Source of the DNA: Tricholomella constricta
Lineage: Eukaryota; Basidiomycota; Agaricomycetes; Agaricales; Lyophyllaceae
NCBI GenBank assembly: GCA_013368375.1
Contig: JAACJP010000044.1
Coordinates: 186,001 to 250,000 of the forward strand
Direction of reading: 5' to 3'
DNA: 64,000 nt
Under the pieces are notes generated by a model. That model saw nothing but the letters and a program-made list of their open reading frames with translations. It made no database searches and was not told the DNA's origin. Below are positions 1 through 62,668 of the stretch, in pieces. The position numbers and the translations under genes were made by a program. Numbering within the stretch: the stretch's first letter is position 1; every line of letters starts with the position of its first letter.

Positions 1-1991
1 CCTTTCGAATGCGACGACAAAGCAATATTCGGCGCTTGGGGAGGTAAGTTCATCAGGGCGTCATATCCATGCTGATCTGAGTGTTGAATTGCTAGTCTGG
101 CATGTTGACGATACATCGTGCCTCGGAACTTGGGGCGATTTGAAGGTATTACAATCACGAGTTCCCTGTCTCCATATCTCATAATGCTAAACACATCCCA
201 GGATAATGGATGTGCTGATGAGCCTGGTAAACGTGAATGGTGCGTTCCTTATAAGAGCCTCAGCCTAACATTTGTCTCTGACCACCCATTCGCTACAGGA
301 GCTCGAAACTGCTCAATGTACACTTCCAAACACAGCTTTCGGTTATATGCAGCTCATCATAGAATGTTACAGATTGTTGGAAGCTGGGAGGGTGCCTGCA
401 ATTCACGCGACAACATTGTCGGGGATGAATACTTCGCAACTCCGTCGTACGTATTCCTACACATTTTCGGTCAAGGTCAAGCGTCTGAGTTGAGCCCACT
501 TTCAGAGTGTGTGAGAAGCACATCACTGGAATTTGTGAGTTTTACCGTTGTTCAGATTACATCATGTTCTGACAGCATGCAGGGGGCGTATTTAAGACTA
601 TGGATACACTCTGTGGTGTCCCTCCGTGCCCCGACAGTTTGTCTTTGTACTGTGCACAGCGCGATATTTTTCTCATCATTTTTTTAGACAGAGTCTGGGA
701 CTACGACACGGGCTCGTGCATGGACTGTAGTGGTGCCGGTCGTCTCATCGCCCCGCGTCGGATACATGAGCGTGCTTCAACCAATGGCTCCACTATTAAC
801 CACAGCAGAGGCTTGGAACCGAATTCCAAAGATGAGCGCCGACGCAGCTTGCATGGCAATTCCACGCATATACACCACAAGCGGATCAAAGAGTGTCTCG
901 TATTCCATCTGCCTCGTCCTCCTCCGATAGATCTGCCTAATAACCCACTCGCATGGACGACCGGCAACGGTACAGTAGGAGCTCAAGCAGAAGGCCCATC
1001 TGTAGAAGACATAGCAAGTGATCCGCGATCCCTAGCGGCTTTCCAGGTATGCAGTGCCTGCCTGAGCCTTACTGTGATCGACTCGAAGTCTTGCTTAGAG
1101 TTTCTGGAATGTATAGGAAGCTTGGAATGACTCGTTCCCGACCGGAAATACGGCTCGAGAAGCTGTACGTCTTTCAAGGCTCTGTGAAGAATATTGTTTA
1201 TCACTGAACATTCCAATAGGGCGGGTAAGCATCCCGGAATCAAGATTGTACCTTTTGACCTGTATTTACACTAAATCTTCACAGTTGGATCTACGCTAAT
1301 TCTACGGGTACGCTGGTAATCTCTCTCGATTTGAACTTTTGCTGACTGAGATTAGACCCTAGCCGTATCATGATACGTCGAGCACAACTGAACAGGGCGA
1401 ATACAATGATCCGCACGCGCCCTCCCAATGTCGCCGCCGGAATCAATCTCAACGATCCTGAGTCTAACCCGGGAACCCCAGCCCCTGCTGGGTATGTTCT
1501 CGTTGCTAACTTCCACACTCACCCAGTCAGTAGTCATTCTACCATAGTTCCACTCTCTCCCTGATGTCTCATGTTCACAGATGGGAAACATATATGGGTT
1601 AATTTCTTGCATTGACAGCCTTGACATATGACTTAACCCCTTTTACAGTGGGAACCCGTCTATCCCTTCAACTGCAGACAACTTCAACGCTTGGTATAGA
1701 GGTGTCCCGGGTATCATCATCCAGTGCGTGGCAAGCTAAGCTTGCTATCAGGATAACAATGCTGACCTACATCTAATCCTCGCAGCCCTAATGGATTGAC
1801 TGCATATGTGCGTGTCAGGTTTGCCGTTAATCTCTCTTTCCGCGTTGACTTTGCTTCTCCAGGGCCCAACGAGACGTGCTATGATGAATTCTCCCCGCGG
1901 GTACCCGAACACCAACGAACCATACAATGGGCAGGGAGGCACCGGTACCAGAGTGGGTTCCTGGTCACCCGATCGAGCACCCAATCAGTAG
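1..1991 (+). CDS. Killer-toxin-like chitinase with C-terminal JAMM-like domain, copy 1 (3' part only)
   Basis: The window opens inside an exon of the second Cys/Trp-rich repeat (FECDDKAIFGAWG) and the gene runs to a TAG at 1989-1991. The remaining exons match the complete copy at 8189-14036 closely: the rest of repeat 2, a Cys-rich piece, a basic linker with RRR and HHKR, and the terminal JAMM-like domain. In that domain the glutamate of the EAGGWIY motif (codon 1159-1161), HTHP (about 1512-1523) and STAD are all kept. The 5-nt exon at 1220-1224 is also present. I saw no frameshift in the visible part. Whether the 5' two thirds (LysM, chitin-binding, GH18) exist lies outside the window. A decayed copy of the small secreted-protein gene follows 300 bp downstream, as in copy 2, so this is a tandem duplicate of the same two-gene unit. 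Confidence 0.75.
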
Positions 1992-2289: not shown

Positions 2290-2757
2290 ATGCAGATCGC
2301 CATTCTCTCCACTTTTCTTTTGGTCTTGCCCGCCATCGTCGCCGCGTGTGAGGGCGAATGCATCATCGGAATCACAAACGCTTTCATATCCAACTATACA
2401 AGTCCTGTCAATATTCTCTTTGAACAACTAGTAAGGCGATATACTCGAGCTCCTTATGTATACCCAAAATTGACCCAGTGCTCTGAAATTCTTGAGGTAG
2501 TTGCAAAAGCCCTTGCGATACGCGCCCCCGCATACATCGCTTTTGGAACCCCTCCTCTCCGCCTACTACAAATATACATATGCATCTCTTGAAAGCGCCG
2601 TCTTCCCTTCTTACTTCCACGGCAAATGCCAGCGGCACGATCCCGAAAACCTCGTGGGCCGTTTGTAAATCCTCTCGGCTGCCCCAACCCAAATTGTCCC
2701 GTCGTCTGCGGAACGCCGGGGTCTATGGTTCATTTTTACCCTAAACTACGATATATC
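2290..2757 (+). pseudogene. Decayed copy of the small secreted protein gene
   Basis: Exon 1 (2290-2430) encodes the same signal peptide and N-terminus (MQIAILSTFLLVLPAIVAA) as the intact gene at 14351. At about 2494 a 10-bp deletion relative to the intact copy removes the 3' splice site and the first codons of exon 2. Further small indels follow, and homology stops near 2757, after the equivalent of the GTPGSMVHFYPKLRYI segment. The C-terminal third is missing. The product would be truncated soon after the signal peptide, so this is a broken relic and not a working second copy. Confidence 0.75.
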
Positions 2758-2976
2758 GGTCGTTAATAAGGGCCTGGGTAGGGCCCATAGCGTTCGTTAT
2801 AAGGGTCTTCATACCTTCCGCACAAATACTCTGACAGGTCTTTAACAAAGGAACAACCATGATATTGACCAGTGAGCCTCTTTACACCTCGTTTACAACT
2901 GTCACAACTAAGCTTCACAATCTCAGCGTAAGTCTATCTTACACGTATTGAATGTTCTTTAAAACTCCTCCAACCA

Positions 2977-4165
<1,189 letters not shown>

Positions 4166-4295
4166 GCATGTCTGGCTGCTGAAAGTTTAAGAACTGCATC
4201 AAGGCAATTCCGGCTCCTGTTTTGGATGGCTTCGACTATCAGTGATTAATCAATGACACCCCTGATGTATTACAGACTGATAAGTATTTTCACTT

Positions 4296-4304
4296 CGGCG
4301 AGAC
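4296..4304. repeat. Target-site duplication, left copy
   Basis: CGGCGAGAC lies immediately outside the left inverted terminal repeat and is repeated exactly at 5033-5041. Confidence 0.85.
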
Positions 4305-5032
4305 GGATAATTCTATATGTGAACCCCCCATAATTTTTGAACCCCCTCATGAACCCCCCCGTATATCTCGGATATGGCACTTGGATAACCCGCGTGACAA
4401 AAATTATTTCAATTCTTGCTAACTGGATTGTAACGCTTTCAGTGCCGCTGAGTTCATTTTAGTCCTTGCCCTGTGCGCCTAGCTCCTTCGTGCCTCTTCA
4501 GCCATTTCGCCTCCAATAAACTCTTGGTCCAGAAATGACACAATGAGTAGCCGTACTCAATTTACGGTAAATTTCTCGGTATGATGGAACACATACCGCA
4601 AAAGGCGCTGGCAGAGATTTCTGAGTTACAAAGCGGCAGGGGCAAAGAACAGAATACGAAGAAATTCAGGTCAGAGAATAACAAATGGTTTGAAGGTGTG
4701 TCTGTCGGTGGTATCGAAACCATGAATATGGGCCATGGCTACTGACTACGCCTAATGAGTGCTCATAAAATCAGGGAAGGGGTATATATGAATGTTTTGA
4801 GTCCGTGTTTATCATTCGTGCGGTCATGGCCAGCTCACAACAGTCACCGCAATGTCGACTTTAAGCCCTGCCTGGAGCTACATCCTCCAGCATTCCGCTA
4901 GCATCTAAATTCCTGATGTGACTGCTAACCTCGGGATGTGTGACCGCGGCCATCTCCGTGGATTTGTCAGCTAAGGAAGAGGGGTTCATGGGGGGGTTCA
5001 TACATTTTGGGGGTTCACAAATAGAATTATCC
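4305..5032. mobile_element. 728-bp non-autonomous TIR transposon (MITE-like, Mutator-type 9-bp duplication)
   Basis: The ends are inverted repeats starting GGATAATTCTAT(A/T)TGTG followed by several TGAACCCCC-type tandem motifs. The left end is at 4305-4360 and the right end, read on the minus strand, is at 5032-4975. Outside them the 9-bp sequence CGGCGAGAC stands as a perfect direct repeat at 4296-4304 and 5033-5041, which is a target-site duplication. The interior has no credible coding sequence. A 9-bp duplication is characteristic of Mutator-like elements, while hAT elements give 8 bp. The superfamily assignment is therefore an inference. I saw no second copy in this window. Confidence 0.85.
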
Positions 5033-5041
5033 CGGCGAGAC
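5033..5041. repeat. Target-site duplication, right copy
   Basis: CGGCGAGAC lies immediately outside the right inverted terminal repeat and is identical to 4296-4304. Confidence 0.85.
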
Positions 5042-5164
5042 AGGCACACCGTACCTACTACCTGTTTCCAACCTGTGTCCCTTATTTTGAGCACACTGGC
5101 TACTTCGGCAGACAAGTTGCGGCTTGACGCGTATTAACCTTTTGCTAGTCAAGTACGAAAGGAC

Positions 5165-6860
5165 TACAAATGTTGCCCGTTATACTTGCACCACTGAAAC
5201 CGCTTTATTTGGTTGCATATGGTACTACTACACACAAGTGCAACATGTCCATTGTCCATCACGTCCTTCTTTCTCTCAATAAAGATACGTGATAATATGA
5301 TCCCGGCACCCGCAGCATCCGCCGGTGACGTCGGATGAGCAGATGCGATCTTTGACGCATGGAAGACACTCTTCTTGACGAATCCAATATAGTGCCCAGC
5401 ATCCGCTGCGCCGCCCTTGTGCGTGATAATCGCTGTTATTGGCACGGTTTTATTCCAGGACTCCACTTGAACTCAAAAGCATGAAAATACGCACCAACAA
5501 GGTCATACAGTCCGCTGACACTCGCACCCGTATCATGCTTCACATCTTCACTGATGAGCGCCTCTAGCTCCTCTCTCTCCTTTGTCCGATATACGCTCTC
5601 GTCCTCGAGCTCGGCCCCAGCGATCTGCTTCCCCTTCTCCAGGGTCGCCTCGCCCGTGGGCGCGTCAACCGTCGCAATCGCCGTGGCGTCGCCCATCTCG
5701 ACATCGGTCGAGGCCACGGTCGCCGATGCCGCAGCAGATGTGGCGCCGGGCGGAGCGTTCTTCGTCCTCTTCCGCACTTTACGTCGCTCCGCCCGCTCCT
5801 TCTCGAGCTCTTTCAGTTTCCGACTAGCGGGTAAGAGCTTAGCCTTAAGATCGTCCGTCGCGAGGTCGAGCGCGTCGAACTCGAGCGGGAACTTGACTTT
5901 GCGTTATAAGGAGTGGAGTGTTCATGTGAGAAAAGTGGCAACGGGGCGTGGAGGCGGCGACGTACCATGATTTTAGCTTTCTTCTGGATGTCTTGTCGCC
6001 ACGCGAAACGGACCATATGCACGACTAGATACCCTGGTAGACGCGTGAGGCGCGATTTTTGGGTGTACACGGCCTCACGGCCAAGGGTGGGTGATCGCCT
6101 TTCGACTTTTTGATCAAGCGAATGGGAATTTGGGTGTGAGTGCATATTATGAGGTCACGCTGAAGATATAGACGCACATTCATGATCCCCGTTAGCATGA
6201 AGTTTGTTGAGACGTTGATATTGCATTCAATTTTGAGGATATTCTCGTGCGTGACGGATGCCTCTTCGGTTGGAGCTTCGTCGCAGGTCAATCTGATATG
6301 GCGAAGGTCAGCGGCTTTTCTAGGTTATCCATTTTGGCAACTCACTCCCGGCGCATCTCACCCATGAGGTATTGTTCGACAAACTTCTTAGGGTTTGTCG
6401 AAGCCTGTTCTGATGGCGAGAGGGAGGAGGAGCCGGCTGAAAGACCGGGGACATTCCTCAACGTATTGATAATTTGTCCGAAGCACTCCTCAGCGTCTGC
6501 GATCCATGACTGTTGATGGGTCGTCGATAAGAATAATTAGAACGTACCCTGCTGTGCGTACCCTCCGGCCATGCCAGGAACTTTCGAGCCGCGATCCATT
6601 TCTGCGAATTGGGGATTGACCTGTTTATCACAGTGTCAAGAGATCGTGCAAATACGCGATAAAAGAGATTCCATACTTGGCGAAGAGTGGACAAAAAGCT
6701 CATGGGTGTAATGCTATCAGTTGTTCGGGACATGATCGTGGCATAGAGATCGCAAAGGGCTCCGGGAAGAGGGGTTGCCGACTGAAGGGAGAGTGAAGAG
6801 CTTGAACAGAGGCACTCATGTAGCAAGTATTTCCAAGACTGAAAATCAAGGATCAACTTG
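5165..6860 (-). pseudogene. UBP6: Truncated UBP6/USP14-type ubiquitin hydrolase
   Basis: The proteasome-associated deubiquitinase is recognisable in order on the minus strand. LGNTCYMSASVQAL (catalytic Cys box, about 6795-6840) is followed by ITPMSFLSTLRQV, GYAQQDAEECFGQIINTL across an intron at about 6545, CDEAPTEE and STNFMLTGI. Then come YTQKSRLTRLPGYLVVHMVRF (6000-6070), an Ala/Glu-rich insert, and the His box THKGGAADAGHYIGFVKK (about 5370-5430). The Cys box and the LPGALCDLYATIM segment just after it are in different frames, which implies a frameshift near 6790. The N-terminal ubiquitin-like domain is absent upstream, and the end of the hydrolase domain after GHYIGFVKK is not recognisable. 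It looks like a degraded duplicate fragment, as with the neighbouring KRR1 relic. Confidence 0.75.
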
Positions 6861-7449
6861 AAGAATACTTGCGAAGACCGACGGGTTTAGCAAGCTTTAT
6901 GTAAACAAAGTTAGGACGATGTGGCCACAAGAGAAGAAAGGACAACCGTGATATTATTATTGGTCTGACTACGGGAGACTGATCAATTAATCACGTCCGG
7001 CTCAGTCTGCCATAAAACAAAGGCAACTAAACATTTTCACCCCTGCAGGTCCATCCACTTGGCGTCCACTAGCCTGCTACATCGACGAACGCACTTTTAA
7101 CCAGCACGCACTTTAGCTAAAGCTTGTGGCAATCATCCCCTTTTTCGACTAAGCGGCTGGTCGTGCAAGGCGTCCCAGTAGCTACTTAATGAGCCACGAT
7201 ACCCTTCGCTACACGAGGCAATTTACGATAAGTAAATCACAGCCAGTATTCGACCCTCCAACGTAGCCCATGCTCAGCCCAGACCTCGATAAGTGAATTC
7301 CAGTAACCCTCGCACAAGATACCTCTAAATCCTCTGCTCTTTATTCCAGGAAAACAAAACTACCAAAATTCCATCTAAAATATCCGTTTGGAAATGGTTT
7401 CGAGGCTCCACTATTTCGAGGTTCCACTACATCATTACTGTCTGGTACT
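6861..7449. other. Non-coding stretch
   Basis: I see no gene, repeat or splice-consistent reading here. Homology with the inverted toxin block begins at about 7450. Confidence 0.4.
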
Positions 7450-8188
7450 CCTGTTGATGGCGCTTGTCGCGCGCGGAAAGTTTCGCTTCTGACTCGGTTG
7501 CAATATGCTGGCGCAGACTCGGACGCAGACATTGTTCACTGCAATATTTTCCGCACCGGAGGCTTGTACTGCAAGTCTGGGTGGTTTCTCTGGCACAGGG
7601 TACAACACGTATCACAACCGGCTTCGAAGGCTTGCATCTAACGCAGATGTATCCGATTTTCTGCACTGTAATTCCCGTCCCAATCCTACCCTGCTTCACT
7701 TCTGCACGCTGCGACGCGTGGTCAATGTTAATCATGCGCTCGTACACTGCCTCCATTCTCAAATGATGCTTACTATAACCTGGCTTGCGTGAAGCATTTC
7801 AGCGCAAAATGCCTGTATTCTGAATTCAGGGCTCTCAGTCTGTGACTCTGTCATCACGTTTCAGACCTACCAAGTGATCTTTAAAACTCGTAGATCAGGC
7901 TTCATTATTGGCAGCAAATACTTGCGAACGTCTTCACGTGTATTGTCCGATAATGTGCCTTACGCAACGCCGCTTGTCGAATTAGGGCGAGAACGGTGCC
8001 TTCCTTAGCGCTCGTGGCGACGACTCGGAGATTGATGGCGCTTGTAAAATCTTAATCTATGATATCCATGCGATGCCGTGAGTAAATGACTGTCCTGGAT
8101 TTCTATTTAACAGTCGTTTTTCTAGATCTTGGGACTCGCATCTCTTCACCAACGTTCTACCCTCGTATCGCTCCAACAGACATTTGTC
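7450..8188 (+). other. Upstream block shared with the inverted toxin copy; possible small gene of uncertain frame
   Basis: This stretch is homologous, with indels, to 47007-47810 read in reverse. Both strands are open over about 300 bp. Comparing the two copies, base changes fall mostly on codon position 3 in the reading that runs in the toxin-gene direction (RRLASNADV, FLHCNSRPNPTLL, NHALVHC). That favours a remnant of coding sequence on the same strand as the toxin gene. A one-base difference between the copies shifts this frame near 7612, and no start or complete exon chain could be settled. The 3' part, about 7800-8188, also holds the promoter of the chitinase. Confidence 0.35.
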
Positions 8189-11100
8189 ATGTTGGCCTTC
8201 AGGGCAACAACAACTGTCGTTTTTCTCTTTCTTTTCACCAAGGCTTTCGCGGCTGACTGTGAAACCGCGACTGTTGGCTCTCCTTATTCAACCTGGTCGG
8301 TCCTTTTTCATTTACTGTTACAAGCCATAATTCTCATACTTTATGCACCTTTTTGTAGCTGGGACATCGCTGTCGCAGCAGGAATCAATACCGACCAGCT
8401 AAACCAGTTTAATCCTGGCCTCGATTGTGCCACGATTCAGCCCGGTCAGAAACGTGAGCACCAGTCGTAACCCTATCGAGCAACAGGCAGCTTGTTTAAC
8501 CTTCCTAATACTCAGTGTGCATAACGGTTGGAGATCTTCCAAGCACTGCTCCATCGCCCAATCCTGATGGATCATGCGCCCAATATACGGTATTTGTGCT
8601 AAGGTTCCCACTCTTTGAACTGACTGATAATTTGTGGTTCTGTAGACTGTGGAAGGCGACTACTGTGCACTGATCGGAACAAGATTTGGAATAACGGCAG
8701 CTCAAATTGAGCAGTTCAATATCAATGTGCGTTTTTCCACTCTCAACCGCTATCACACTGACAGATTTTTGTATACAACTTCAGACATACAAGGTCAGTT
8801 CCTCCGTCTCAATGAAATAAGAAGATTCCTGATAGAATTTCAAGTGGCGAGGATGCGCCAACCTTCAGCTCGGTGAGTCATGTTCCCCTTCGAGATCTAC
8901 GCAGTATCTACCACGAGACTGATATGATGTTCAAGGTTTCTCCCTCTGTGTTCGTACACATGAATATTTAACACGCGTAGAGAACGATATACTGACTTGA
9001 ATAACAGGTTTCAACTGGTACACCCCCACCTATCCCCGTCAACCCTGCTCTTCAATGTGGACCCGAATCTCCTGGAGCGGCTGAGTGCCCCCTGAAGGCC
9101 TGCTGTTCCCCGTAAGGTTACATGTCTTCTTCTATTCACTTATTAATCAATCGTGCAGCTTCGGCTACTGCGGAATAACGAGCGAGTTCTGTACGTCGAA
9201 GGTCGTTACATGCGAACTGAGACTTCAATTAACGATCTTTCTTAGGCGAGGCCTCCCCAAGCGGTGAACCGTGCATCTCTAATTGTGGTTATGCCACTGT
9301 ACCCAGTTGCAGTGGGTCTCAGCTCACACGTCACGTTGGTTATTATGCGGGCTGGGCTGCAACTCGCGATTGCAACACAGTCACAGTCAGCCAGCTCGAC
9401 CTCACAGGATTAACACACGTCATGTAGGGCATGACTACCCCTGCATTTAAAACCCATAACTGACACGCCACCCTGAAAGCTACGCTTTTGCCTCTATCGG
9501 AGAAGATATGAAGATCAAATTTGATGATCCAACCGATGGCGATCGTCTTAGGGAGCTCGTCACCAAAGCGGGGTCTAATATCAAGGTCTTGATTGCCGTA
9601 GGAGGTTGGACTTTCTCTCAGGGAGCGACGAAGGACATGTTCTCTACCATGATCGGCGACGCCGCGAATCGTGCCACGTTCATCAACTCTGCGAACGCTT
9701 TCATTTCAAGTTATGGGATCGCTGGTATTGGTACGGCTGTCGAGGAGATGCTCGTGGAGCTATCACTGATGCATTTTCACTTTTTAGATATAGACTTCGA
9801 ATACCCATCCTCTATTGAACGAAACGGGCCTCCCTCTGATACCCCCAACCTCACACTCTTCTTCAGAGAATTAAGAGCAAACCTGGGCACCTCCACTCTT
9901 ATTACTATCGCAACTCCTGGTGAGTGTCAATAGCTCTTCAGCTGCCAGTTGTACTAAGTGCGATAATTATTAGCGGGATATTGGTTCCTCAAAGGTGCGC
10001 ACGGAGACTCCTCTTCGCTTCGAATTTCGTATCTGACTTCAACGATTCGATCTAGGTTTCGAACTAGACAAGATATCCCCCGAAGTATCTTTCTGTATGT
10101 TCTGTTTATCGCTCTTCCAAGTAGTTCAGCTAAACGTGCCGGCTGTTATTCAGTTAACATGATGTCGTATGACTACCGTAAGTGACTCTCTGCTCGAAGG
10201 AGAGCTCTCACACTGACGCAATACACTGTCGATAGATGGACCGTAAGTGACAACCCGTGATCGTTTTTTGAGGTCCCCTAAAAGGCACGGTTTTTGGTAT
10301 CAAGATGGGACGCCACGATTCCTGGCGCTGACTCCACTGCTCAGGTATCACTGCGCCCATTAGTATATGGCTATACCTGACACGATGTTTTCTTATTGTC
10401 GTTTTTAGCCTCAAAGCTCCCTACTGGATATCAAGGACAGCGTCAAGCTCTACGTCAAAGCTGGTGTCGACATGAATAAAGTCAACCTGGGGCTGGCCTG
10501 GTACGGCCGCACGTATGAGCTTGAGGACACCGGCTGTGCAGGCTACAACTGCGACATGAAAGGGGGCGGCGTCAAGGGGGTTTGTTCGGGTGAAAGTCAG
10601 TATAGCTATTACAGCTTCTTGGCCGCTGGAAGGAAATTGACCCCATTTCACAGGCGGTATTATGGCAAATTTCGAGATCAATCAGGTTGGTCCAAGAATA
10701 CGTCAATGATCTGAGAAATCTGACCGATGATCAGTTAATCATGGACGCCGACGTTCGACCCCGCTTGGATCCGGTGAGCGTTCTTCGCTCCAGATTATAA
10801 GCGTTACTCACAACCCTCAGGCATCCCAAACACTATGGTTCAGTAAGTCGTCGTGTTGCGGTGAATTTCATACATTCTGAAGACCCCCACTCATGAAGAA
10901 CATGGCAATGATATCATCACTTATGATGACGATGGTACACTCGCTGCGAAAGCTGATTTTGCCGTAAGTACTTTCAGTAATTGATCACAACACTTGGTGA
11001 CGCTCTTTAGAAATCTTCCTGTTTTGGAGGCGTAAGTGTTCCCTTCAATCTATCGAGGTCTCCGGCAGAAACACTTATTTTTTTTTAGACAATGATCTGG

Positions 11101-14036
11101 TCTATTGACCAAAACATGCCTGCGGGTATGTTCCGAACAATATTCCACGACATTGAGTACTTTACTGAACCCTGTAAATAGACGCGGCGAACCCTGGAAG
11201 CGGCGGAGCCTTTCCTGTCCTGAGCCCACAGGAGGTGGGTAACCCCTTCGGAGCGCAATGGGAAAGACCAACGGCAGGGTCCTGTACATCCTACGGGACT
11301 AGGATGTATGTATCTCGTCTCTGGTTCAGTAGGTTCCGATTCTTCTCGAGCATTACTTCGGATTCTCATTTGAACTCAGTTCCTAGTGGTGTCGATTGGC
11401 TCCAGGCTTGCCAGGCATCGCCAATTGTCATCAACGGGATTCAGTCAGTCTCACTCGTTAACTGTGAGATTTATCGTTACTGAAACGCGAACTTTCCAGT
11501 TATCCTGTCCCCGATGTATGCGAAAACCAGTAAGTGGCACATTTACGTATTTGTACATAATCGTTTCTTAATTTCTATTCAGAGGGATGTGGTCCGGCGC
11601 CGTCGGAAAGTGGTTTGTTTCATCAGAAGACCCTCAGTGGTAGGTTTATCATGCTGCCTTTGCACCGTATTGGTCCTAATCCTCGCAGTATGGCGCACTG
11701 GGGCGGCATGACGGATGACGGATGTGTCGACAATGGTAAGTGAAGTGAAGTGTTCATCATCATCTCTTACAAAACTCCACCAGGTGTTCGACGTTATTAT
11801 AGGCAAGTGATATCGTAATCCTATGTCCTTCTTGTAATCATCTCCGCCATACCTTGCAGTCGACTGTGGGGCATTGGTTCAGGAGTGGATTGGATGGTGA
11901 ATGTCACCTCTCGTTGTTGGGATTGCACTGAACTCATCCAACTCACAGATGATGTGCAAGTCGACTCCTGCGACAGTAAGTCAACTCTCAATATAAAACA
12001 TATCGTATTGACGCGACATCAGGTGGGCGGTGTTTACTTTGATTCACCCTTCCAATGCGACGACAAAGCAATATTCGGCGCTTGGGGAGGTAAGTTATTC
12101 AGGGCGTCATAATCATGCAGATCTGACTCTTTGGATTGCTAGTCTGGCGTGTTGACGATACATCGTGCCTTGGAACTTGGGGCGATTTGAAGGTATTACA
12201 CTGACGAGTTCCCTGTCTCCACATGATGCTAAACACATCCCAGGATAACGGATGTGCTGATGAGCCTGGTAAACGTGAATGGTGCGTTCCTTATTAGAGC
12301 CTCAGCCTAACATTTGTCTCTGACCACCCATTCAATGCAGGAGCTCGAAACTACTCAATGTACACTTCCAAACACAGCTTTCGGTTATATACAGCTCATC
12401 ATAGAATGTTACAGATTGTTGGAAGCTGGGAGGGTGCCTGCAATTCACGCGACAACATTGTCGGGGATGAATACTTCGCAACTCCATCGTACGTATTTCC
12501 ACACATTTCCGGTCAAGGTCAAGCGTCTGAGTTTAAGCCACTTTCAGAGTGTGTGAGAAGCACATCACTGGAATTTGTGAGTCTTACCGTTGTTCAGATT
12601 ACATCATGTTCTGACAGCATGCAGGGGGCGTATTTAAGACTATGGATACACTCTGTGGTGTCCCTCCATGCCCCGACAGTTTGTCTTTGTACTGTGCACA
12701 ACGCGATATATTTCTCATCATTTCTCTAGACAGAGTCTGGGACTACGACACGGGCTCGTGCATGGACTGTAGTGGTGCCGGTCGTCTCATCGCCCCGCGT
12801 CGGATACATGAGCGTGCTTCAGCCAATGGCTCCACTATTAACCACAGCAGAGGCTTGGAACCGAATTCCAAACATAAGCGCCGACGCAGCTGGCATGGAA
12901 AGTCCACCCATATCCACCACAAGCGGATCAAAGAGTGTCTCGTATTCCATCTGCCTCGTCCTCCTCCGATAGATCTGCCTAATAACCCATTCGCATGGCC
13001 GGCCGTCAACGGCACAGTAGGAGCTCAAGCAGAGGGCCCAACTGTAGAAGAAATAGCAAGTGATCCGCGAGCCCTAGCGAGTTTCCAGGTATGCAGCGCC
13101 CTCCTGGGCCTTACTGTGATCGACTCGGAGTCTTGCTTAGAGTTTCTGGAATGTATAGGAAGCTTGGAATGACTCGTTCCCGACCGGAAATACGGCTCGA
13201 GAAGCTGTACGTCTTTCAAGGCTCTGTGAAGAATATTGTTTATCACTGAACATCCCAATAGGGCGGGTAAGCATCCCGGAATCAAGATTGTACCTTTTGA
13301 CCTGTATTTACACTAAAAATCTCACAGCTGGATCTACGCTGATCCTATGAGTACGCTCGTAATCTCCCTCGATTTGAATCTGTGCTGACTGAGATTAGAC
13401 CCTAGCCGTATCATGATACGTCGAGCACAACTGAACAGGGCGAATACAATGATCCGCACGCGCCCTCCCAATGTCGCCGCCGGAATCGATCTCAACGATC
13501 CTGAGTCTAACCCAGGAACCCCAGCCCCTGCTGGGTGGGTTCTCGTTGCTAACTTCCACACTCACCCAGTCAGTAGTCATCCTACCATAGTTCCACTCTC
13601 TCCCTGATGTCTCATGTTCACAGATGGGAGACATATATGGGTTAATTTCTTGCATTGACAGCCTTGACATATCACTTAACCCCTTTTTTACAGTGGGAAC
13701 CCGTCTATCCCTTCAACTGCAGACAACACCAACGCTTGGATCAGAGGTGTCCCGGGTATCATTATCCAGTGCGTGGTTAGCTAAGCTTGCCATCAGGATG
13801 ACAATGCTGACCTACACCTACTCCTCGCAGCCCAGGTGGATTGACTGCATATGTGCGTGTCAGGTTTGCTGTGAATCTTCTTTTCCGTGTTAACTTTGCT
13901 TCTCCAGGGTCCAGCAAGACGTGCTATGCTAAGTGCTCCACGCGGATACCCAAATACAAACGATCCATACGGTGGGCAGGGAGCTGCGGGTCACAGAGTA
14001 GGTTCCTGGTCACCCGCTCCAGCACCCAATCAGTAG
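8189..14036 (+). CDS. Secreted killer-toxin-like chitinase: LysM x2, CBM18, GH18, repeats, C-terminal JAMM-like domain (copy 2, complete)
   Basis: The start at 8189 gives a signal peptide (MLAFRATTTVVFLFLFTKAF). Then follow LysM 1 (about 8255-8460), LysM 2 (about 8520-8870), and a hevein-type chitin-binding domain (CCSPFGYCG, about 9050-9190). GH18 follows (about 9300-11110), with YYAGWAATRDC, AVGGWTF, the active-site strand GIDIDFEYP rebuilt across an intron, and GGTMIWSIDQ. Two Cys/Trp-rich repeats of about 75 residues come next (about 11385-12300). After a linker with KHKRRR and HHKR, a terminal domain (about 13020-14036) carries EAGGWIY, FHTHP (13554-13568), STAD (13713-13724) and VPGIII. 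These are the Glu and HxHP...SxxD positions of JAB/JAMM metal sites. LysM-CBM18-GH18 is the layout of fungal subgroup C chitinases, related to the carrier subunit of yeast zymocin. The first Asp of the GH18 DxxDxDxE motif is Ala. More than 20 short introns are needed, one GC-AG (11803-11859). Length is about 1,000-1,100 residues. No frameshift was seen. Confidence 0.8.
11803..11859 (+). other. GC-AG intron in toxin gene copy 2
   Basis: The donor is AG|GCAAGT and the acceptor TTGCAG (57 nt). Splicing here joins YYS-RLWGIG in frame between the two Cys/Trp-rich repeats. The inverted copy has the same GC donor at the same position (complement 43331-43387), so it is a conserved feature and not a base error. 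Confidence 0.7.
13262..13266 (+). other. Five-nucleotide micro-exon GGCGG in toxin gene copy 2
   Basis: A GTACGT...AATAG intron (13207-13261, 55 nt) and a GTAAGC...CACAG intron (13267-13327, 61 nt) enclose GGCGG. Including it joins the exons in frame and builds the motif EAGGWIY, in which Glu is a metal-site residue of JAB/JAMM folds. Skipping it gives an immediate stop. The same 5 nt and both splice sites recur at 1220-1224 and complement 41912-41916. In the inverted copy the first intron carries an even better branch site (TGACTAAAC). Confidence 0.65.
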
Positions 14037-14350
14037 ATATATCCACCATTCCAGTGACTGTCGCATCGTAGCGTTTTAAGTGCATGTGGCTTTCCGTCGG
14101 CCGGGACTCTTCTTCGACAGTCCAGAGTCAAGAAGTCGGTAGTCTTATTATATATATTCTATCGTCCCGATAGTGGTTCGGCGCTGTTGAAAAGGTGGCG
14201 CAAGACTCGAATCACGTGGTTAACGCGAGTGAACATCTCGCGTGAAAGGTTTGTATCATGGTCGACATTCAACACTTTTCAGCTTGCAGCGCAGGCATCT
14301 GATATCACTCAACGAATACACGCCTCCAATCAAATAAACATCACGCCAGC

Positions 14351-15137
14351 ATGCAGATCGCCATTCTCTCCACTTTTCTTTTGGTCTTGCCCGCCATCGT
14401 CGCCGCGTGTGAGGGCGAATGCATTATCGGAATCACAAACGCTTTCATATCCAACTATACAGTTCCTGTCAATATTCTCTTTGAACAACTAGTAAGGCGA
14501 TATACTCGAGCTCCTTATATATGAACAAAATTGAACCAGTGCTCTGAAATTCTTTCAGGCCAACGAGGTGGTTGCGAAAGTCCTTACCAACCGGCGATAC
14601 GCGTCCCCGCCTATATCGCTTATGGAACCCCTCCTCTCCGCCTACCGCAAAGCTGCATATGCATCTCTTGAAAACGCCATCTTCCCTTCATACTTCCACG
14701 GCAAATGCCAGCGGCGGGATCCCGAAAACCCCGATGGGCCGTTTGTAAATCCTCCCGGCTGCCCCAACCCAAATTGTCCCGTCGTATGTGGAACGCCCGG
14801 GTCTATGGTTCACTTCTACCCTAAATTACGGTATATCGCGTTCAATGCGACCAGGCACCAGCTCGTTGACTTCGCGAGTCCCGAAAACGAGGTCTATCAG
14901 GCAGTTGAGAGAGGCATCGTGAGCGAGATCAAGTCCGGTGGCGGTCGCAGAAATACGGTAAGGGCGGCGGGAACGAGGATGCCGAAACAGTGGAGACGAG
15001 AGCAGGTGAAAAGGCAAATGAGAGAGATTATGGGACAGGTTTCCTCTCGACTGGAGAAGATTTGTGGTGGTATGCACGGGTTGCCGAAGTGCAGTTGGGA
15101 GAAGGAGATGAAGGAATTCATCCTGAGCTATCCGTGA
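14351..15137 (+). CDS. Small secreted protein of unknown function, partner gene of the toxin
   Basis: Two exons (14351-14491 and 14559-15137, GTAAGG...TTTCAG intron) encode 239 residues. A clear signal peptide (MQIAILSTFLLVLPAIVAA) is followed by a Cys pair (CEGEC), an NYT glycosylation site, a Cys-rich stretch (CPNPNCPVVCG, about residues 120-130) and a basic C-terminal half (KSGGGRRNT, KQWRREQVKRQMREI). I do not recognise the family. It begins about 310 bp after the toxin stop on the same strand. The same pair existed after copy 1, where this gene has decayed, and no copy follows the inverted toxin gene. The constant pairing suggests a functional link, such as a second toxin subunit or an extracellular accessory factor. 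A secreted immunity protein is possible but not shown by the sequence. Confidence 0.75.
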
Positions 15138-24056: not shown

Positions 24057-24654
24057 CGATCATGGGCGGCCTATGTTCTTACAGTGGGATGGCTCGCCGT
24101 GTCCTGGGTGATCTATTCTTTCGCTCTACAGGTCGCCACAATGTTGTCGTAAATTCTCGTAAATTTTTGTTTTGGTAGCATTCTATTATATGGGGCCTTG
24201 TAGATCGCTTTTATTCTTTCGGTTTCATTATCATATTCACCCATCACACTCACTGTCTCCATCTCTCATCACTGTGTCTTCAGTCCCTGTCATTGTTGTC
24301 ATTGTATGTGCTGCTGTATCTCTACTTCTTGATCTTCACTTGTACTGCGTTTCTGGCATATAATTCACCGATCATAACAGTAGGACTTTTTTTTTCGGGT
24401 GTGGCGTTCAAGCTCCAATTTTCCACGGCTTACGCCACCGTTTATAGACACACGTCCTGTTCATGCTTTCATGAAAATTACACCTGGTGATGTCCTGGTA
24501 TCTCTCGCTCTCTCTGACCACCTCTTAGATAGTGTTGTTTTGACACCATAATCGGATTTTTTCCCTTTGACCCCGCCTCAAGAACTCCTCAATTAATTAT
24601 GTAATCATTTTGCACCTCTGGATGCGCGCCGGTCTTCCCTTTCTTCCCTCCGTC
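24057..24654. other. Intergenic region
   Basis: This holds the 3' flank of SSK1 and the 5' flank of the NTPase copy. It is pyrimidine-rich with T-runs, and I recognise no gene. Confidence 0.4.
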
Positions 24655-41143: not shown

Positions 41144-44100
41144 CTATTGATTGGGCGCTGGATCGGGTGACCAGGAACCCACTCTGGTACCAGCGCTTCC
41201 CTGCCCATTGTATGGATCGTTGGTGTTCGGGTACCCGCGGGGAGCATTCAGCATAGCACGTCTCGTTGGGCCCTGGAGAAGCAAAGTCAACACGGAAAAA
41301 GAGATTCACGGCAAACTTGACACGCACATATGCAGTCAATCCATTAGGGCTGCGAGGATTAGCTGTAGGTCAGCATTGATATCCTGATGGCAAGCTTAGC
41401 TTTCCACGCACTGAATGATGATACCTGGGACACCTCTAAACCAAGCGTTGGAGTTGTCGGCAGTTGAAGGAACAGACGGGTTCCCACTGTAAAGTGGGTT
41501 AATCAATATGTCAAGGCCGTCAATGCAAAAATTGACCCATATGCGTCTCCCATCTGTGAACATGAGACATCAGGAAGAGAGTGGAGTGACTATGGTCGGA
41601 TGACTACTGACTGGGTGAGTGTGGAAGTTGGCAACGAGAACCCATCCAGCAGGGGCTGGGGTTCCTGGGTTAGACTCAGGACTGTTGAGATTGATTCCGG
41701 CGGCGACATTGGGAGGGTGCAGGCGGTTCATTGAATTCGCCCTGTTCAGTTGTGCTCGACGTATCATGATACGGCTAGGGTCTAATCTCATTCAGCACAA
41801 ATTCAAATGGAGAAAGATTACCAGCGTACTCGCAGGATCAGCGTAGATCCAACTGTGCAATTTAGTGTAAATACAGGTCAAAAGGTACAACCTTGATTCC
41901 AGGATGCTTACCCGCCCTATATATTGGGATGTTTAGTCATGGAAATCATTCTTCACAAAGCCTTGAAAGACGTACAGCTTCTCGAGCCGTATTTCGGGTC
42001 GGGAACGAGTCATTCCAAGCTTCCTATACATTCAAGAAACTCTGAGCAAGACTCCGAGTCGATCGTAGTAAGGCCCAGGAAGGCATTGCATACCTGAAAC
42101 CTCGCTAGGGCCTGCGGACTACCTACGATTTCTTGTACAGATGGACCTTCTGCTTGACTTCCTACTGCACCGTTGATGTCCGGCCATGCCAATGCGTTAT
42201 TAAGCAGATCTACCGGTGAAGGACGAGGAAGATGGAATGGGAGACACTCTTTGATCCGCTTGTGGTGGATATGGGTGGAATTTCCATGCAAGCTGCGTCG
42301 GCGCTCATCTTTGAAATTCGGTTCCAAGCCTCTGCTGTGGTTAATAATGGAGCCATTGGCTGAAACACGGTCATGTATCCGACGCGGGGCGATGAGACGA
42401 CCGGCACCACTACAGTCCATGCACGAGCCCGTGTCATAGTCCCAGACTCTGTCTAGAAAAATGATGAGAAATATATCGCGCTTTGCACAGTACAAAGACA
42501 AAGACAAACTGTTGGGGCACGGAGGGACACCACAGAGTGTATCCATAGTCTTGAATACGCCCCCTGCTTGCTGTCAGAACATGATGTAATCTGAACAACG
42601 GTAAGACTCACAAATTCCAGTGATGTGCTTCTCACACACTCTGAAAGTGGGTTTAGTCGGACGCTTGACCTTGACTGAAGATGTCTAGAAATACGTACGA
42701 AGGAGTTGCGAAGTATTCATCCTCGACGGTATTGTCACGTGTATTGCAGGCATCCTCCCAGCTTCCAACAATCTGTAACGTACTATAATGAGCTGTATAC
42801 AAACGAAAACTGTGTTTGAAAGTGTACATCGAGTAGTTTGGAGCTCCTGCATTGAACGGGTGGTCAGAGACAAGTGTTAGGATATGGCTCTTATAAGGAA
42901 CACACCATTCACGTTTACCAGGCTCATCAGCGCATCCGTTATCCTGGGATCGTGTTTAGGATCGTGACATTTAGAGACAGGGAGCTTGTCAGTGTAATAC
43001 CTTCAAATTGCCCCAAGTTCCGAGGCACGTCGTATCGTCAACGTGCCAAACTAGCAATTAAACAGTCAGATCAGCATGAATATGACGCCTGATCAACTTA
43101 CCTCCCCAAGCGCCGAATATTGCTTTGTCGTCGCATTCGAAAGGTGAATCAAAGTTAACACCGCCCACCTGATGTCGCATTGATATGATATGGTTTATAC
43201 TGAGGGTTTACTTACTGTCGCAGGAGTCGACTTGCACATTATCTGTGAGTTGGATGAGTTCAGTGCAATCCCAACAAAAGAGGTGACATTCACCATCCAA
43301 TCCACTCCTGAAGCAATGCCCCAAAGTCGACTGCAAGGTAGGGCGAAAATAATTACAAGAAGGACATAGGTTTACGTTAGCACTTGCCTATAATATTTTC
43401 GAACACCTGGTGGAGTTTCGTAAGAGATGATGATGAACACTTTACTTCACTTACCATTGTCGACACATCCGTCATCCGTCATGCTGCCCCAATGTGCCAT
43501 ACTGCGAGGATTAGGGCCAATACGGTGCAAAGGCAGTATGAAAAACTTACCAGTGGGGGTCGGTTGAGGAAACAAACCACGTTCCGACGGCGCCGGTCCA
43601 AATCCCTCTGAATTGGATTTTCTATTTAAAAAATGCGCAAATGCGTGATATGTGCCACTTACTGGTCTTCGCATTTATCGGGGACAGCATAACTGGAGAG
43701 TTTGCGTTTCAGTAACGAGAGATCTCACAGTTAACAAGTGAGACTGACTGCACCCCGTTTATGACAACTGGCGAGGACTCGCAAGCCGTCATCCAATCGA
43801 TACCACTAGGAACTGGGCTCAAATGAGAATCCAAAAGTAATGCCCGAGAAAAATTGGAACCTACTGTACCAGAGACGAGCTGTATACATCCTGGTACCGT
43901 AGGATGTACAGGACCCTGCCGTGGGTACTTCCCATTGCGCTCCGTAGGGGTTACTCACTACCGCTTTGCTGATAACAGGAAAGGCTATGCCGGTTCCAGG
44001 GTTCGCCGTGTCTATTTACAGGGTTCAGAGAGTTACTCAATGTGGTGGAATATTGTTCGGAACATACCTGCAGGAATGTTTTGGTCAATAGACCAGATCA

Positions 44101-47006
44101 TTGTCTAAAAGTTATAAGTGTTTCCGCCGGGGACCTCGATAGATTGAAGGGAACGCTTACGCCTCCAAAACAAGAAGATTTCTATAGAGCGTCACCAAGT
44201 GTTCTGATTCATTACTGAAAGTACTCACAGCAAAATCAGATTTCGCAGCAAGTGTACTGTTGTCATCATAAGTGATAATATCATTGCCATGTTCTTCATG
44301 AGTGGGGTTCATCAGAATATATGAAACGCACTGCAACACGACGACTTACTGAACCATAGTGTTTGGGATGCCTAGGAATTGTGAGTAACGCTTATGTCCT
44401 GAAGCGGAGAATGCTCACCGTATCCAAGCGGGGTCGGACGTCGGCGTCCATGATTACCTGATCATCTATCAGGTTTCTCAGACCATTGACATACTCTTGG
44501 ACCAACCTGATTGATCTCGAAATTTGCCAAAACACCGCCTGTGAAACGGGGTCAGTTTCCTTCCAGCGGCCAAGAAGCTGTAAAAGCTATGCTGACTTTC
44601 ATTCGAACAAAGCCCCTTGACGCCGCCCCCTTTCATGTCGCAGTTGTAGCCTGCACAGCTGGTGTCATTAAGCTCATAAGTGCGGCCGTACCAGGGCAGC
44701 CCCAGATTGACTTTATTCATGTCGACACCAGCTTTGACGTAGAGCCTGACGCTGTCCTGTATATCCAGTAGGGAGCTTTGAGGCTAAAAACGATAAAAAA
44801 GAATCGTGTCAGGCATAGCCATATACTAAAGGGCGCAGTGAATACCTGAACAGTGGAGTTGGCGCCAGGAACAGTGGTGTCCCATCTTGATACAAAAACC
44901 GTGCCTTTTAGGGGACTTCAAAAACGATCACGGGTTGTCACTTACGGTCCATCTATCGACAGTGTACTGCGTCAGTGTGAGAGCTCTCTTTCGAGCAGAG
45001 AGCCACTTACGGTAGTCATACGACATCATGTTAACTGAATAGCAGCCGGAACGTTTAGCTGAACTACTTGGAAGAGCGATAAACAGGACATACAGAAAGA
45101 CACTTCAGGGGATATCTTGTCTAATTCGAAACCTAGATCGAATAGTTGAAGTAAGATATTTTGAAGCGACGAGGAGTCTCCATGCGTACCTTTGAGGAAC
45201 CAATATCCCGCTAATAATTATCGCACTTAGTGAAATGGGCAGTTGAAGAGCTGTTAACCTTACCAGGAGTTGCGATAGAGATAAGAGCGGAGGTGCCCAG
45301 GTTTGTTCTCAATTCAGTGAAGAAGAGTGTGAGGTTGGGGGTATCAGAGGGAGGCCCGTTTCGTTCGATAGAGGCTGGGTATTCAAAGTCAATATCTGAA
45401 AAGGCGAAAATGCATCAGTGATAGCTCCACGAGCATCTCCCCGACAGCCGTACCAATGCCAGCGATCTCATAACTTGAAATGAAAGCGTTCACGGAGGTG
45501 ATGAAAGTGGCACGATTCGCGGCGTCGCCGATCATGGTAGAGAACCTGTCCTTCGTCGCTCCTTGAGAGAAGGTCCAACCTCCTACGGCAACCATGACCT
45601 TGGTATTAGACCCCGCTTTGGTGACGAGCTCCCTAAGACGATCGCCGTCGGTTAGATCTTCAAAACTGATAGTCATATCTTCTCCGATAGATGCAAAAGC
45701 GTAGCTTTCAGGGTAGCGCGTCAGTAATTCCTGGATTCTAGATGTAGGGATGGTAATGCCCTACATGACGTGTGTTAATCCTGTGAGGTCGAGCTGGCTG
45801 ACTGTGACCGGGTTGCAATCGCGAGTTGCAGACCAGCCCGCATAATAACCAACGTGACGCGTGAGCTGAGATCCATCACAACTGGGTATAGTGGCATAAC
45901 CGCAATTAGAGATGCACGGTTCACCGCTTGGGGAGGCCTCGCCTAAGAAAGATCGTTAATTGAAGTCTCGTTTCGCGTGTACGACCTTCGACGTACAGAA
46001 CTCGCTCGTTATACCGCAGTAGCCGAAGCTGCATGATTGATTAATAAGTGAAGAGATAGGGACATGTAACCTTACGGGGAACAGCAGGCCTTCAGGGGAC
46101 ATTCAGCAGCTCCAGGAGATTCAGGTCCACATTGAAGAGCAGGGTTGACGGGGATAGGTGGCGGTGTACCAGTTGAAACCTGTTATTCAAGTCAGTATAT
46201 CGTTCTCTACGCGTGTAAACGATTCAAGTGTACGAACACACAGGGTGAAACCTTGAACATCATGTCAGTCTCGTGGTGGATGCTGCGTAGACCTTGAAGG
46301 GAAATATCACTCACCGACTTGAAGGTTAGCGCATCCTCGCCACTTGAAATATTATCAGGAATTTTTTGAATCAATGAGGCGGAGGAACTAACCTTGTATG
46401 TCTGAAGTCGTATACAAAGATTTGTCAATATGATAGCGGTCGAGAGTGGAAAAACGCACATTGATATTAAACTGTTCAATTTGAGCTGCCGTTATTCCAA
46501 ATGTTGTTCCGATAAGTGCACAGTAGTCGCCTGCTACAGTCTACAGAACCGCATATTATCAGTCAGTTCAAAGAGTGGGAACCTTAAGCTTAGCACAAAT
46601 ACCGTATATTGAGCGCATGACCCATCAGGATTGGGCGATGGAGCAGTGCTCGGAAGATCTCCAACTGTTATGCACACTGGATATTAGGAAGGTTAAACAA
46701 GCTGCCTGTTGCTGGATAGGGCTACGACTAGTGCTCACGTTTCTGACCGGGCTGAATCGCGGCACAATCGAGGCCAGGATTATACTGGTTTAGTTGGTCG
46801 ATATTGATTCCTGCTGCGACAGCGATGTCCCAGCTACGCAAGGGCGCATAAATTATGAGAATCATAGCTTGTAACGGTAAATGAAAAAGAACCGACCAGG
46901 TTGAATAAGGAGAGCCAACCGTCGCGGTTTGACAGTCGGCCGCGAAAACCTTGGAGAAACAAAAGAGAAAAACAAGAGTTGTTGTCGTTGCCCTAAAGGA
47001 CAACAT
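41144..47006 (-). CDS. Killer-toxin-like chitinase with C-terminal JAMM-like domain, copy 3 (inverted, complete)
   Basis: The start at 47006 gives a signal peptide (MLSFRATTTTLVFLFCFSKV). The domains follow the order of copy 2. LysM 1 has AGINIDQLNQYNPGLDC, LysM 2 has the EQFNIN equivalent, and a hevein-type domain lies at about 46000-46100. In GH18, VAVGGWTFSQGATKD is followed by the AGIDIDFEYP strand across an intron at about 45410-45470. Two Cys/Trp-rich repeats and the linker with RRR and HHKR follow. The JAMM-like domain has the same Glu, FHTHP (about 41640) and STAD residues. The Ala in place of the first GH18 Asp, the GC-AG intron and the 5-nt exon are shared with copy 2, so all predate the duplication. 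I saw no frameshift. Differences are spread as single substitutions, and many change residues in the linker and LysM regions. Neighbours differ: the partner secreted-protein gene is missing downstream. Confidence 0.78.
41912..41916 (-). other. Five-nucleotide micro-exon GGCGG in toxin gene copy 3
   Basis: It is enclosed by GTACGT...ATATAG and GTAAGC...GCACAG introns on the minus strand, exactly as in the other two copies. It completes the EAGGWIY motif in frame. Confidence 0.65.
43331..43387 (-). other. GC-AG intron in toxin gene copy 3
   Basis: On the minus strand AG|GCAAGT...TTGCAG spans 57 nt, at the same place and of the same length as in copy 2. Confidence 0.7.
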
Positions 47007-62150: not shown

Positions 62151-62209
62151 AAAAAAGCAGGAACAACGCAAGATTGGTGAAGGTGAAAAAGAGGCAAGAT
62201 GACGGCATA

Positions 62210-62668
62210 CATTCAGAGTCGACAGGATGCGCCAGGAGGACAGAGACCCCTCCTTCCTTTAGGAACAAGCGGCGCAAACAGCGAAGAGGAACATGTCGGT
62301 CGCATACATACAGAATCGACAGGATGCGCCAGGAGGACAGACACCCCTCCTTCCCGCTGGAACAAGTGGCGCGAACAACGGAGAGGAACATGGCGGTCGC
62401 ATACATACAGAATTGACAGGATGCGCCAGGAGGACAGACACCCCTCCTTCCCACTGGAACAAGTGGCGCGAACAACGGAGAGGAACATGTCAGTGGCATA
62501 CATACAGGATGCGCCAGGAGGACAGACACTCCTCCTTCCCGCTGGAACAAGTGGCGCGAACAACGGAGGGGAAGATCAGCATACATTCAGAGCCAACGGG
62601 GCACGCCAGGAGGACAGGCACCCCTCCTTCCCGTAGTAGCAAGTGGCGTGAACAAAGGGGAGAGATGT
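62210..62668. repeat. Minisatellite, five units of about 97 bp
   Basis: Units start near 62210, 62306, 62403, 62500 and 62584. Each holds GATGCGCCAGGAGGACAGAC (or close), CCCCTCCTTCCC, GGAACAAGTGGCGCGAACAA and GAGGAACATG. Units 2 and 3 are nearly identical, while units 4 and 5 are shortened to about 84 bp. Because 97 is not a multiple of three, every frame stays open for a while. The long open frames across it are a by-product of the repeat. Confidence 0.85.

What the first reader, a model, noticed from the sequence alone, without database searches (positions are those of the whole stretch)
13020..14036. JAMM-like metal-site domain fused to the C-terminus of a killer-toxin-like chitinase
The spliced C-terminal exons carry an EAGGWIY strand, FHTHP, a downstream STAD and a VPGIII strand, in the order of the Glu, HxHP and SxxD metal-site residues of JAB/JAMM domains. 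The spacing between HTHP and STAD (12 residues) is longer than the classical 7, as in divergent toxin-associated JAB-like families (DUF4329 would be my first comparison). The rest of the protein is a chitin-targeting carrier like the zymocin alpha subunit. A fungal polymorphic toxin with a deubiquitinase- or protease-like payload would be a system I do not know to be described.
Basis: partly seen in the sequence, partly recalled or inferred. Interest (0 to 1): 0.93.

Follow-up and report, generated by a model that had tools for sequence, protein, structure and literature searches.

The report
Mushroom chitinase carrying JAB metallo-hydrolase payload
A soil mushroom makes a secreted chitin-attacking protein whose tail is a metal-site enzyme domain related to ones that strip ubiquitin and to tails of bacterial toxins, which looks like a fungal killer toxin with an unreported kind of warhead.

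Summary
The gene (8189-14036, +; my 48-exon model) encodes a signal peptide, LysM, CBM18, GH18 chitinase, a Cys-rich region and a tail with E929, H993-x-H995, S1009 and D1012 in one frame. Two paralogues about 90% identical (copies A, C) keep the modelled splice sites and reading frame. The tail belongs to a true JAMM/JAB family: of 74 chosen relatives 46 hit Prok-JAB and 27 DUF4329. The AF2 model of a relative is confident over the domain and its listed PDB matches are JAMM/MPN proteins. Relatives end bacterial PAAR, Rhs and eCIS-core proteins. A Kex2-type dibasic site with a Cys at +4 precedes the domain in 11 of 11 proteins examined; copies A, B and C each have 37 carrier Cys and one in the tail. 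I read this as a processed, disulfide-tethered toxin payload. Not shown: cleavage, delivery, catalysis, target. Payload swapping was not found: all 7 proteins found with the Cys-rich carrier region carry JAB. The window is a Tricholomella constricta contig with three clustered copies.

The parts
8189..8251 (+). Start of gene copy B; signal peptide (residues 1-21, by eye)
   Evidence: Most hydrophobic stretch of the protein; gene model
8291..8526 (+). LysM domain (residues 35-71, spliced)
   Evidence: Pfam PF01476, 50.0 bits, cut-off 20.9
9053..9286 (+). CBM18 chitin-binding domain (residues 152-195, spliced)
   Evidence: Pfam PF00187, 37.4 bits, cut-off 27.8
9332..11112 (+). GH18 chitinase domain (residues 211-542, spliced), DIDFE motif at residue 325
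   Evidence: Pfam PF00704, 224.5 bits, cut-off 29.6; GH18 rows for the relative P0003; motif
11122..12791 (+). Cys-rich carrier region (residues about 546-815, spliced); the 4-base exon 11803-11806 is probably mis-modelled
   Evidence: (query residues 540-870): 7 proteins at E<=1e-5 among 1016 candidates, all 7 also JAB hits
12792..12926 (+). Basic linker ending in the dibasic Kex2-type site K859-R860 (12921-12926)
   Evidence: Dibasic site with Cys at +4 in 11 of 11 proteins examined (10 KR, 1 RR); 3 of the 11 are window copies and 3 are fragments
12936..12938 (+). C864, the only cysteine of the 216-residue tail
13032..14033 (+). JAMM/JAB domain (from about residue 896 to 1076; part of exon 12730-13088, then 13159-13206, 13262-13266, 13328-13350, 13399-13568, 13624-13640, 13694-13768, 13831-13852, 13908-14036)
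   Evidence: relatives
13201..13203 (+). Metal-site Glu E929
   Evidence: E in 69 of 74 aligned relatives
13557..13568 (+). HTHP, metal-site His H993 and H995
   Evidence: HTHP in 74 of 74 aligned relatives
13713..13724 (+). STAD, metal-site S1009 and D1012
   Evidence: S in 68 of 74 and D in 73 of 74 aligned relatives
1..1988 (+). 3' part of paralogue copy A (the rest lies upstream on the contig, L076; open frame throughout in my model)
41147..47006 (-). Paralogue copy C (P0001, Tricholomella constricta D9615_008102)
14351..15137 (+). Small secreted-type protein gene (2 exons, 239 aa), candidate partner or antidote; no known family
   Evidence: 3 places found in the genome, each directly 3' of a JAB tail; dN/dS 0.17 between two copies

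Best explanation
This is a secreted killer-toxin-like protein of the mushroom Tricholomella constricta. A LysM/CBM18/GH18 carrier binds and opens chitin walls. A Kex2-type protease cuts after R860 during secretion, and the 216-residue tail stays attached to the carrier through its single cysteine (C864). After entry into a chitin-walled cell and reduction of that bond, the tail acts as a JAMM zinc hydrolase, most likely an isopeptidase or peptidase on ubiquitin-like conjugates. Shown here: the gene model, the domains, the predicted JAMM fold of relatives, the conserved ligands, the conserved dibasic site with its lone Cys, and dN/dS below 1 between copies. Inferred: cleavage, disulfide, entry, activity, substrate and target organism.
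For: Domain and fold. Ligands: all five in 68 of 74 relatives. Carrier. Processing and tether: dibasic site with Cys at +4 in 11 of 11 proteins examined, of which 8 are chitinases (3 of them the window copies) and 3 are deposited fragments; one tail Cys in 9 of those 11; 37 carrier Cys plus 1 in the tail in copies A, B and C. Toxin context of bacterial relatives: PAAR (L001), Rhs core (L029, L032, P0119), eCIS core (L023). Selection: dN/dS 0.41 for B-C and for B-A, tail 0.46 and 0.67 (point estimates, no test). Zymocin precedent for a chitinase carrier with a separate cytotoxic subunit: PMC11119588 passages.
Against: No experiment and no RNA data. The window tail alone reaches only 16.2 bits with Prok-JAB (cut-off 25) and does not match DUF4329. 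Foldseek gave no row at E<=0.001, and the best Z (9.1) is only modestly above the level the tool calls common. In the deposited models of other carriers the Cys count varies with the model (19 to 40 after residue 22), so the parity argument rests on the three window copies; P0052 and P0053 have 4 and 2 tail Cys. The Rhs-borne relative P0119 has Asn for the Ser ligand in my alignment. There is no hydrophobic segment like zymocin beta. Zhang et al. argue that toxin JABs do not conserve the ubiquitin-tail tunnel and may be nucleases (passages). The tail changes faster than the GH18 domain. Payload swapping was not found.
Confidence: 0.57

Rival explanations
1. Same delivery, different chemistry: the tail is a nuclease toxin using the JAMM metal site, as proposed for RadC and for toxin JABs.
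For: Zhang et al. 2012 propose this for Tox-JAB-1 and Tox-JAB-2 (passages). PMC7216683 and PMC10469887 label DUF4329 an RNase domain, the former on an earlier report (passages). Most bacterial targets of PAAR and Rhs toxins have no ubiquitin (recalled).
Against: The listed structural matches are JAMM/MPN proteins, many of them peptidases of ubiquitin-like proteins. PMC7216683 itself notes proteasome-lid similarity for one tail with a DUF4329 motif. A fungal target cytosol has ubiquitin-like substrates (recalled).
Confidence: 0.17
2. Extracellular enzyme, not a toxin: the chitinase and a cut-off JAMM peptidase work together outside the cell for nutrition or own-wall remodelling.
For: Fungi use chitinases for nutrition and wall recycling (PMC4392113 passages). 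Conifers and other eukaryotes have stand-alone versions with signal-like starts.
Against: Some bacterial relatives sit on toxin-delivery proteins. The dibasic site and tail Cys are conserved. The gene has been duplicated with a faster-changing tail.
Confidence: 0.16
3. The tail is a catalytically dead binding or decoy domain.
For: 5 of 74 relatives, among them conifer proteins, have lost the Glu and Ser ligands, so probably inactive members exist.
Against: E, H, H, S and D are all present in the window protein and in the motifs of the translated copies A and C.
Confidence: 0.06

Closest known systems
Zymocin of Kluyveromyces lactis (alpha/beta/gamma killer toxin)
   Same: Chitin-binding plus chitinase carrier, secreted, cytotoxic subunit separate from the carrier, disulfide bonds in the trimer (PMC11119588 passages; PMC4392113 passages).
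   Different: Here the payload is encoded in the same chain and is a JAMM domain, not the gamma tRNase; the gene lies on a 379-kb contig with 47 modelled introns, not on a linear plasmid; no hydrophobic beta-like segment was seen.
Tox-JAB-2 / DUF4329 toxin domains of bacterial polymorphic toxins
   Same: JAMM ligands E, HxH, S, D; 27 of 74 relatives of this domain match DUF4329, and some relatives sit on Rhs, PAAR and eCIS-core proteins. Zhang et al. list fungi (ascomycota) among the holders.
   Different: The window protein does not match DUF4329 itself; the carrier is a fungal chitinase; the host is a basidiomycete.
LysM chitinases with Hce2 effector tails (class III Hce2)
   Same: Fungal C-II LysM chitinases grouped with Hce2 effector proteins (PMC8042737, one passage; that the Hce2 domain is a tail is recalled).
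   Different: Different payload. That survey's text has no occurrence of 'JAB'.
JAMM/MPN+ enzymes (P. furiosus JAMM1, BRCC36, AMSH, Rpn11; bacterial Cap3)
   Same: Best structural matches and same ligand order (recalled for those enzymes).
   Different: Those are intracellular (recalled); here the domain is in a secreted-type protein, with a longer gap between HxHP and SxxD (12 residues).
Beta/gamma-crystallin-JAB proteins P0008-P0011 (organism unknown)
   Same: Same domain, 41-43% identical, at the C-terminus of a repeat carrier.
   Different: Crystallin carrier in place of chitinase.

Membership tests
JAB/JAMM (MPN+) superfamily | JAMM fold | tested here: met
   AF2 model of relative P0012, ten-residue block means 78-97 over residues 91-270; the 50 rows listed are, by title or by my knowledge of the complexes, JAMM/MPN proteins; in the chitinase relative P0003 the domain is also confident. 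The window's own spliced tail was not folded.
JAB/JAMM (MPN+) superfamily | Glu, HxH, S, D metal and catalytic ligands | tested here: met
   E929, H993, H995, S1009, D1012; all five in 68 of 74 relatives
JAB/JAMM (MPN+) superfamily | Zinc binding and hydrolase activity | not testable with these tools
   Needs protein
DUF4329 / Tox-JAB-2 | Match to the Pfam model | tested here: not met
   No DUF4329 match for the window tail at E<=10; only Prok-JAB, 16.2 bits, below its cut-off of 25. 27 of 74 relatives match at E<=0.01, so related but not filed as a member
DUF4329 / Tox-JAB-2 | C-terminal payload of a toxin carrier | tested here: inconclusive
   Relatives on PAAR, Rhs, eCIS core; here the carrier is a chitinase whose toxin role is inferred
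Zymocin-type killer toxin | LysM/CBM18/GH18 carrier | tested here: met
   (one LysM above cut-off)
Zymocin-type killer toxin | Kex2-type processing into subunits (feature recalled) | tested here: inconclusive
   Conserved dibasic site; cleavage itself not observed
Zymocin-type killer toxin | Disulfide-linked cytotoxic subunit | tested here: inconclusive
   37 + 1 Cys in the three window copies; one tail Cys in 9 of 11 proteins
Zymocin-type killer toxin | Hydrophobic beta subunit | tested here: not met
   No stretch outside the signal peptide above a mean hydropathy of 1.07 over 19 residues
Polymorphic toxin system | Same carrier with exchanged C-terminal payloads | tested here: not met
   7 of 7 proteins found with this Cys-rich carrier region have the JAB tail (word-limited search). 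Another LysM/CBM18/GH18 gene in this genome (L078) has a different tail, but no match to this carrier region
Polymorphic toxin system | Adjacent immunity gene | tested here: inconclusive
   Gene 14351-15137 or a relative of it lies next to 3 of the 4 JAB loci found in the genome; function unknown
Subgroup C (killer-toxin-like) chitinase | LysM + CBM18 + GH18 | tested here: met
   PMC8042737 abstract says the C clade is not resolved from A; no GH18 tree was built here

The most novel reading that the evidence does not exclude
A two-gene fungal killer system: a chitinase-borne, Kex2-released, disulfide-tethered deubiquitinase whose self-protection is the small secreted-type protein encoded just downstream (14351-15137). 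The payload would be shared with bacterial PAAR, Rhs and eCIS toxins and with crystallin-type carriers of another lineage.
Probability: 0.2. Interest if true: 0.88.

Novelty: new variant of a known kind. Interest (0 to 1): 0.7.

Why it matters
If true, mushrooms hold a killer-toxin class whose warhead acts on ubiquitin-like conjugates, a target I know of no killer toxin for (recalled). It would join the yeast zymocin design to the bacterial toxin-JAB family, whose chemistry (peptidase or nuclease) is unsettled in the papers I saw. A fungal version with all five ligands, a conserved cleavage-type site and three open copies in one genome is a practical protein for settling that question.

Tried and rejected
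Chance motif: rejected on homology, although the motif alone is weak. Artefact of splicing: rejected on copies A and C, with the reservation that the same check also passed a 4-base exon that is probably wrong. Zymocin-like hydrophobic subunit: not seen. Payload swapping: not found (that search sees only proteins of 0.55 to 1.75 times the length that share 5-residue words). Prokaryotic relatives by the eukaryote-type alignment: 0 of 27 pattern matches confirmed; with an alignment of bacterial-type proteins 65 of 105. Of the 65 loci, a script listed the 26 with both motifs in one open frame and I scanned 8 by Pfam; 2 of those 8 (L009, L029) had no Pfam match at E<=0.01, though L029 has an Rhs core by NCBIfam; L001 matched PAAR but no JAB model, its JAB part resting on tblastn. 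NCBIfam gave nothing for the window tail. Prok-JAB over the own genome gave nothing, as expected for a sub-threshold domain split over small exons. RadC does not appear in the listed fold rows; that excludes nothing. The whole-protein model of P0003 is poor in the carrier (mean pLDDT 54.8), so tether geometry could not be judged, and its listed fold rows are GH18-type proteins, leaving its JAB part untested there. Papers: search listings; passages only, of PMC3482391, PMC11119588, PMC3218866, PMC8042737, PMC10469887, PMC7216683, PMC4392113. None of what I saw reports a chitinase-JAB fusion; subscription papers and preprints were not searched.

Rows dropped: the tree used 57 chosen rows, out of 131 proteins and the window copies; alignment A2 holds 74 chosen proteins of the 120 listed; a further 126 at E<=0.01 were never listed. 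The first Cys count stopped with an error after 8 of 11 proteins and was redone. The report check added and changed statements on the gene model, the Cys counts and P0119; confidence in the best explanation went from 0.58 to 0.57.

Full report
What is in the window. The protein search returned two Tricholomella constricta proteins, both with a longest contig of 378931 bases; the own-genome tool places the window at C44:186001-250000 of a 44.1 Mb, 118-contig assembly, and C44 is 378931 bases long. Copy C in the window gives P0001 letter for letter on both sides of one junction, beside an N-terminal extension of the deposited model. So the window is from that mushroom (Lyophyllaceae). The finding's gene lies at 8189-14036 on the + strand. 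My model has 48 exons and 1076 residues, all introns GT-AG, 47 to 70 bases long; three introns were changed by eye. One 4-base exon is probably a GC-AG case and the protein 1081 residues; numbers here follow the 1076-residue model. The deposited model of copy A (P0002) splices two places differently and lacks EAGGWIY; the DNA of copy A allows it.

Domains. Pfam gives LysM, Chitin_bind_1 and Glyco_hydro_18, all above cut-off. The tail gave one family in all of Pfam at E<=10: Prok-JAB, E 0.0098, below cut-off. The tail-region search found 11 proteins at E<=0.01 among 824 candidates: seven GH18 proteins (Tricholomella and Agrocybe two each, Marasmius, Lyophyllum and one without a name) and four crystallin-type proteins of unknown organism. 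A profile of ten tails (the window's and nine of these proteins) found 246 proteins at E<=0.01 among 5376 candidates, 120 listed. The listed ones include stand-alone mushroom proteins, a chytrid, conifers, a clubmoss and many short proteins of bacterial type.

Anatomy of the junction. A dibasic site with a cysteine at +4 precedes the domain in 11 of 11 proteins examined, ten KR and one RR. Eight are chitinases, three of them the window's copies; three (P0028, P0052, P0053) are deposited fragments. Nine of the eleven have just one Cys in the tail; P0052 has 4 and P0053 2. Copies A, B and C have 37 cysteines in the carrier and one in the tail. Deposited models of the carriers vary (19 to 40 after residue 22). 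An odd carrier plus one tail Cys fits a single inter-chain bond, but parity is not proof.

Function of the family. Among bacterial relatives the domain ends a PAAR protein (L001), Rhs-core proteins (L029, L032, P0119) and an eCIS-core protein (L023); many others are stand-alone proteins of about 138 residues. So the payload is at home in toxin delivery, though not only there. In the tree of 57 chosen tails the nine chitinase tails form one clade (97/99), apart from a clade of eleven stand-alone rows, ten of them named mushroom proteins; the root is by midpoint only, two chitinase rows are long branches that may attract each other, and the bacterial side has 87/77.

Selection and copies. Copies A, B and C have open frames. 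B-C dN/dS is 0.41 overall, 0.46 in the tail and 0.39 in GH18; B-A is 0.41, 0.67 and 0.26. These are point estimates without a test. The tail is constrained but changes faster than the GH18 domain. A fourth, 5'-truncated JAB copy lies on C17. The Cys-rich carrier region matched only the three C44 copies in this genome (best candidates only).

The neighbour. The two-exon gene at 14351-15137 encodes a 239-residue protein with a signal-like start. It matches three places in the genome, each directly downstream of a JAB tail: open after B, interrupted after A, open on C17; copy C lacks it. B versus C17 gives dN/dS 0.17. The DNA around these copies is itself alike, so they probably spread by segmental duplication, and linkage alone does not show that it is an antidote.

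Comparison with print. Zhang et al. 2012 describe Tox-JAB-2 (partly DUF4329) in bacterial toxins, list ascomycete fungi, and suggest nuclease activity (passages). Later papers label DUF4329 an RNase (passages). LysM chitinases related to Hce2 effectors are known (passage). Zymocin gives the precedent for a chitinase carrier with a separate cytotoxic subunit (passage). I saw no report of a chitinase-JAB protein in the searches named under Tried and rejected.

Verdict. A chitinase carrier of known type with a real and, as far as my searches go, unreported JAMM tail, built as if to be cut, tethered and delivered. The fold is close to certain; the killer reading is likely; the deubiquitinase activity is a reasoned guess.

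Noticed in passing
window 14351-15137 (+); L077 8085-8872: Small secreted-type protein gene, no known family, found in the genome only next to JAB tails and constrained (dN/dS 0.17).
   Followed up: partly
window 7496-14170 and 47727-41019; 1-2758 and 12047-14838: Segmental duplications (88.6% and 90.6% identical) made three chitinase-JAB copies in one cluster.
   Followed up: yes
L077 about 4800-7777: On C17 the JAB copy is cut off at its 5' end and preceded by sequence that looks to me like a retrotransposon gag region (by eye only).
   Followed up: no
window 24638-27536 and 34395-31505: Inverted duplication, 91.8% identical, with open frames of which three scanned match no Pfam family at E<=0.05; a Ferritin_2 frame lies between (29122-30303, -).
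   Followed up: partly
window 62205-62662: Cluster of short imperfect repeats, 79-86% identical.
   Followed up: no
P0025, P0034, P0051, P0049, P0031: These relatives (P0025, P0034 and P0051 named as conifer proteins) have lost the Glu and Ser ligands, suggesting inactive versions. P0031, labelled Listeria, looks like the conifer ones and may be contamination.
   Followed up: no
P0008-P0011: Beta/gamma-crystallin proteins with the same JAB tail, organism unknown; P0010 and P0011 list the same longest contig length, 611445.
   Followed up: partly
L078 about 2676-5300 and beyond: Another LysM/CBM18/GH18 gene of this genome with a different, repeat-rich C-terminal region, judged by eye.
   Followed up: partly
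L023, Silvibacterium MAG: eCIS-core protein with a peptidoglycan-binding domain and a sub-threshold Prok-JAB match near its end.
   Followed up: no
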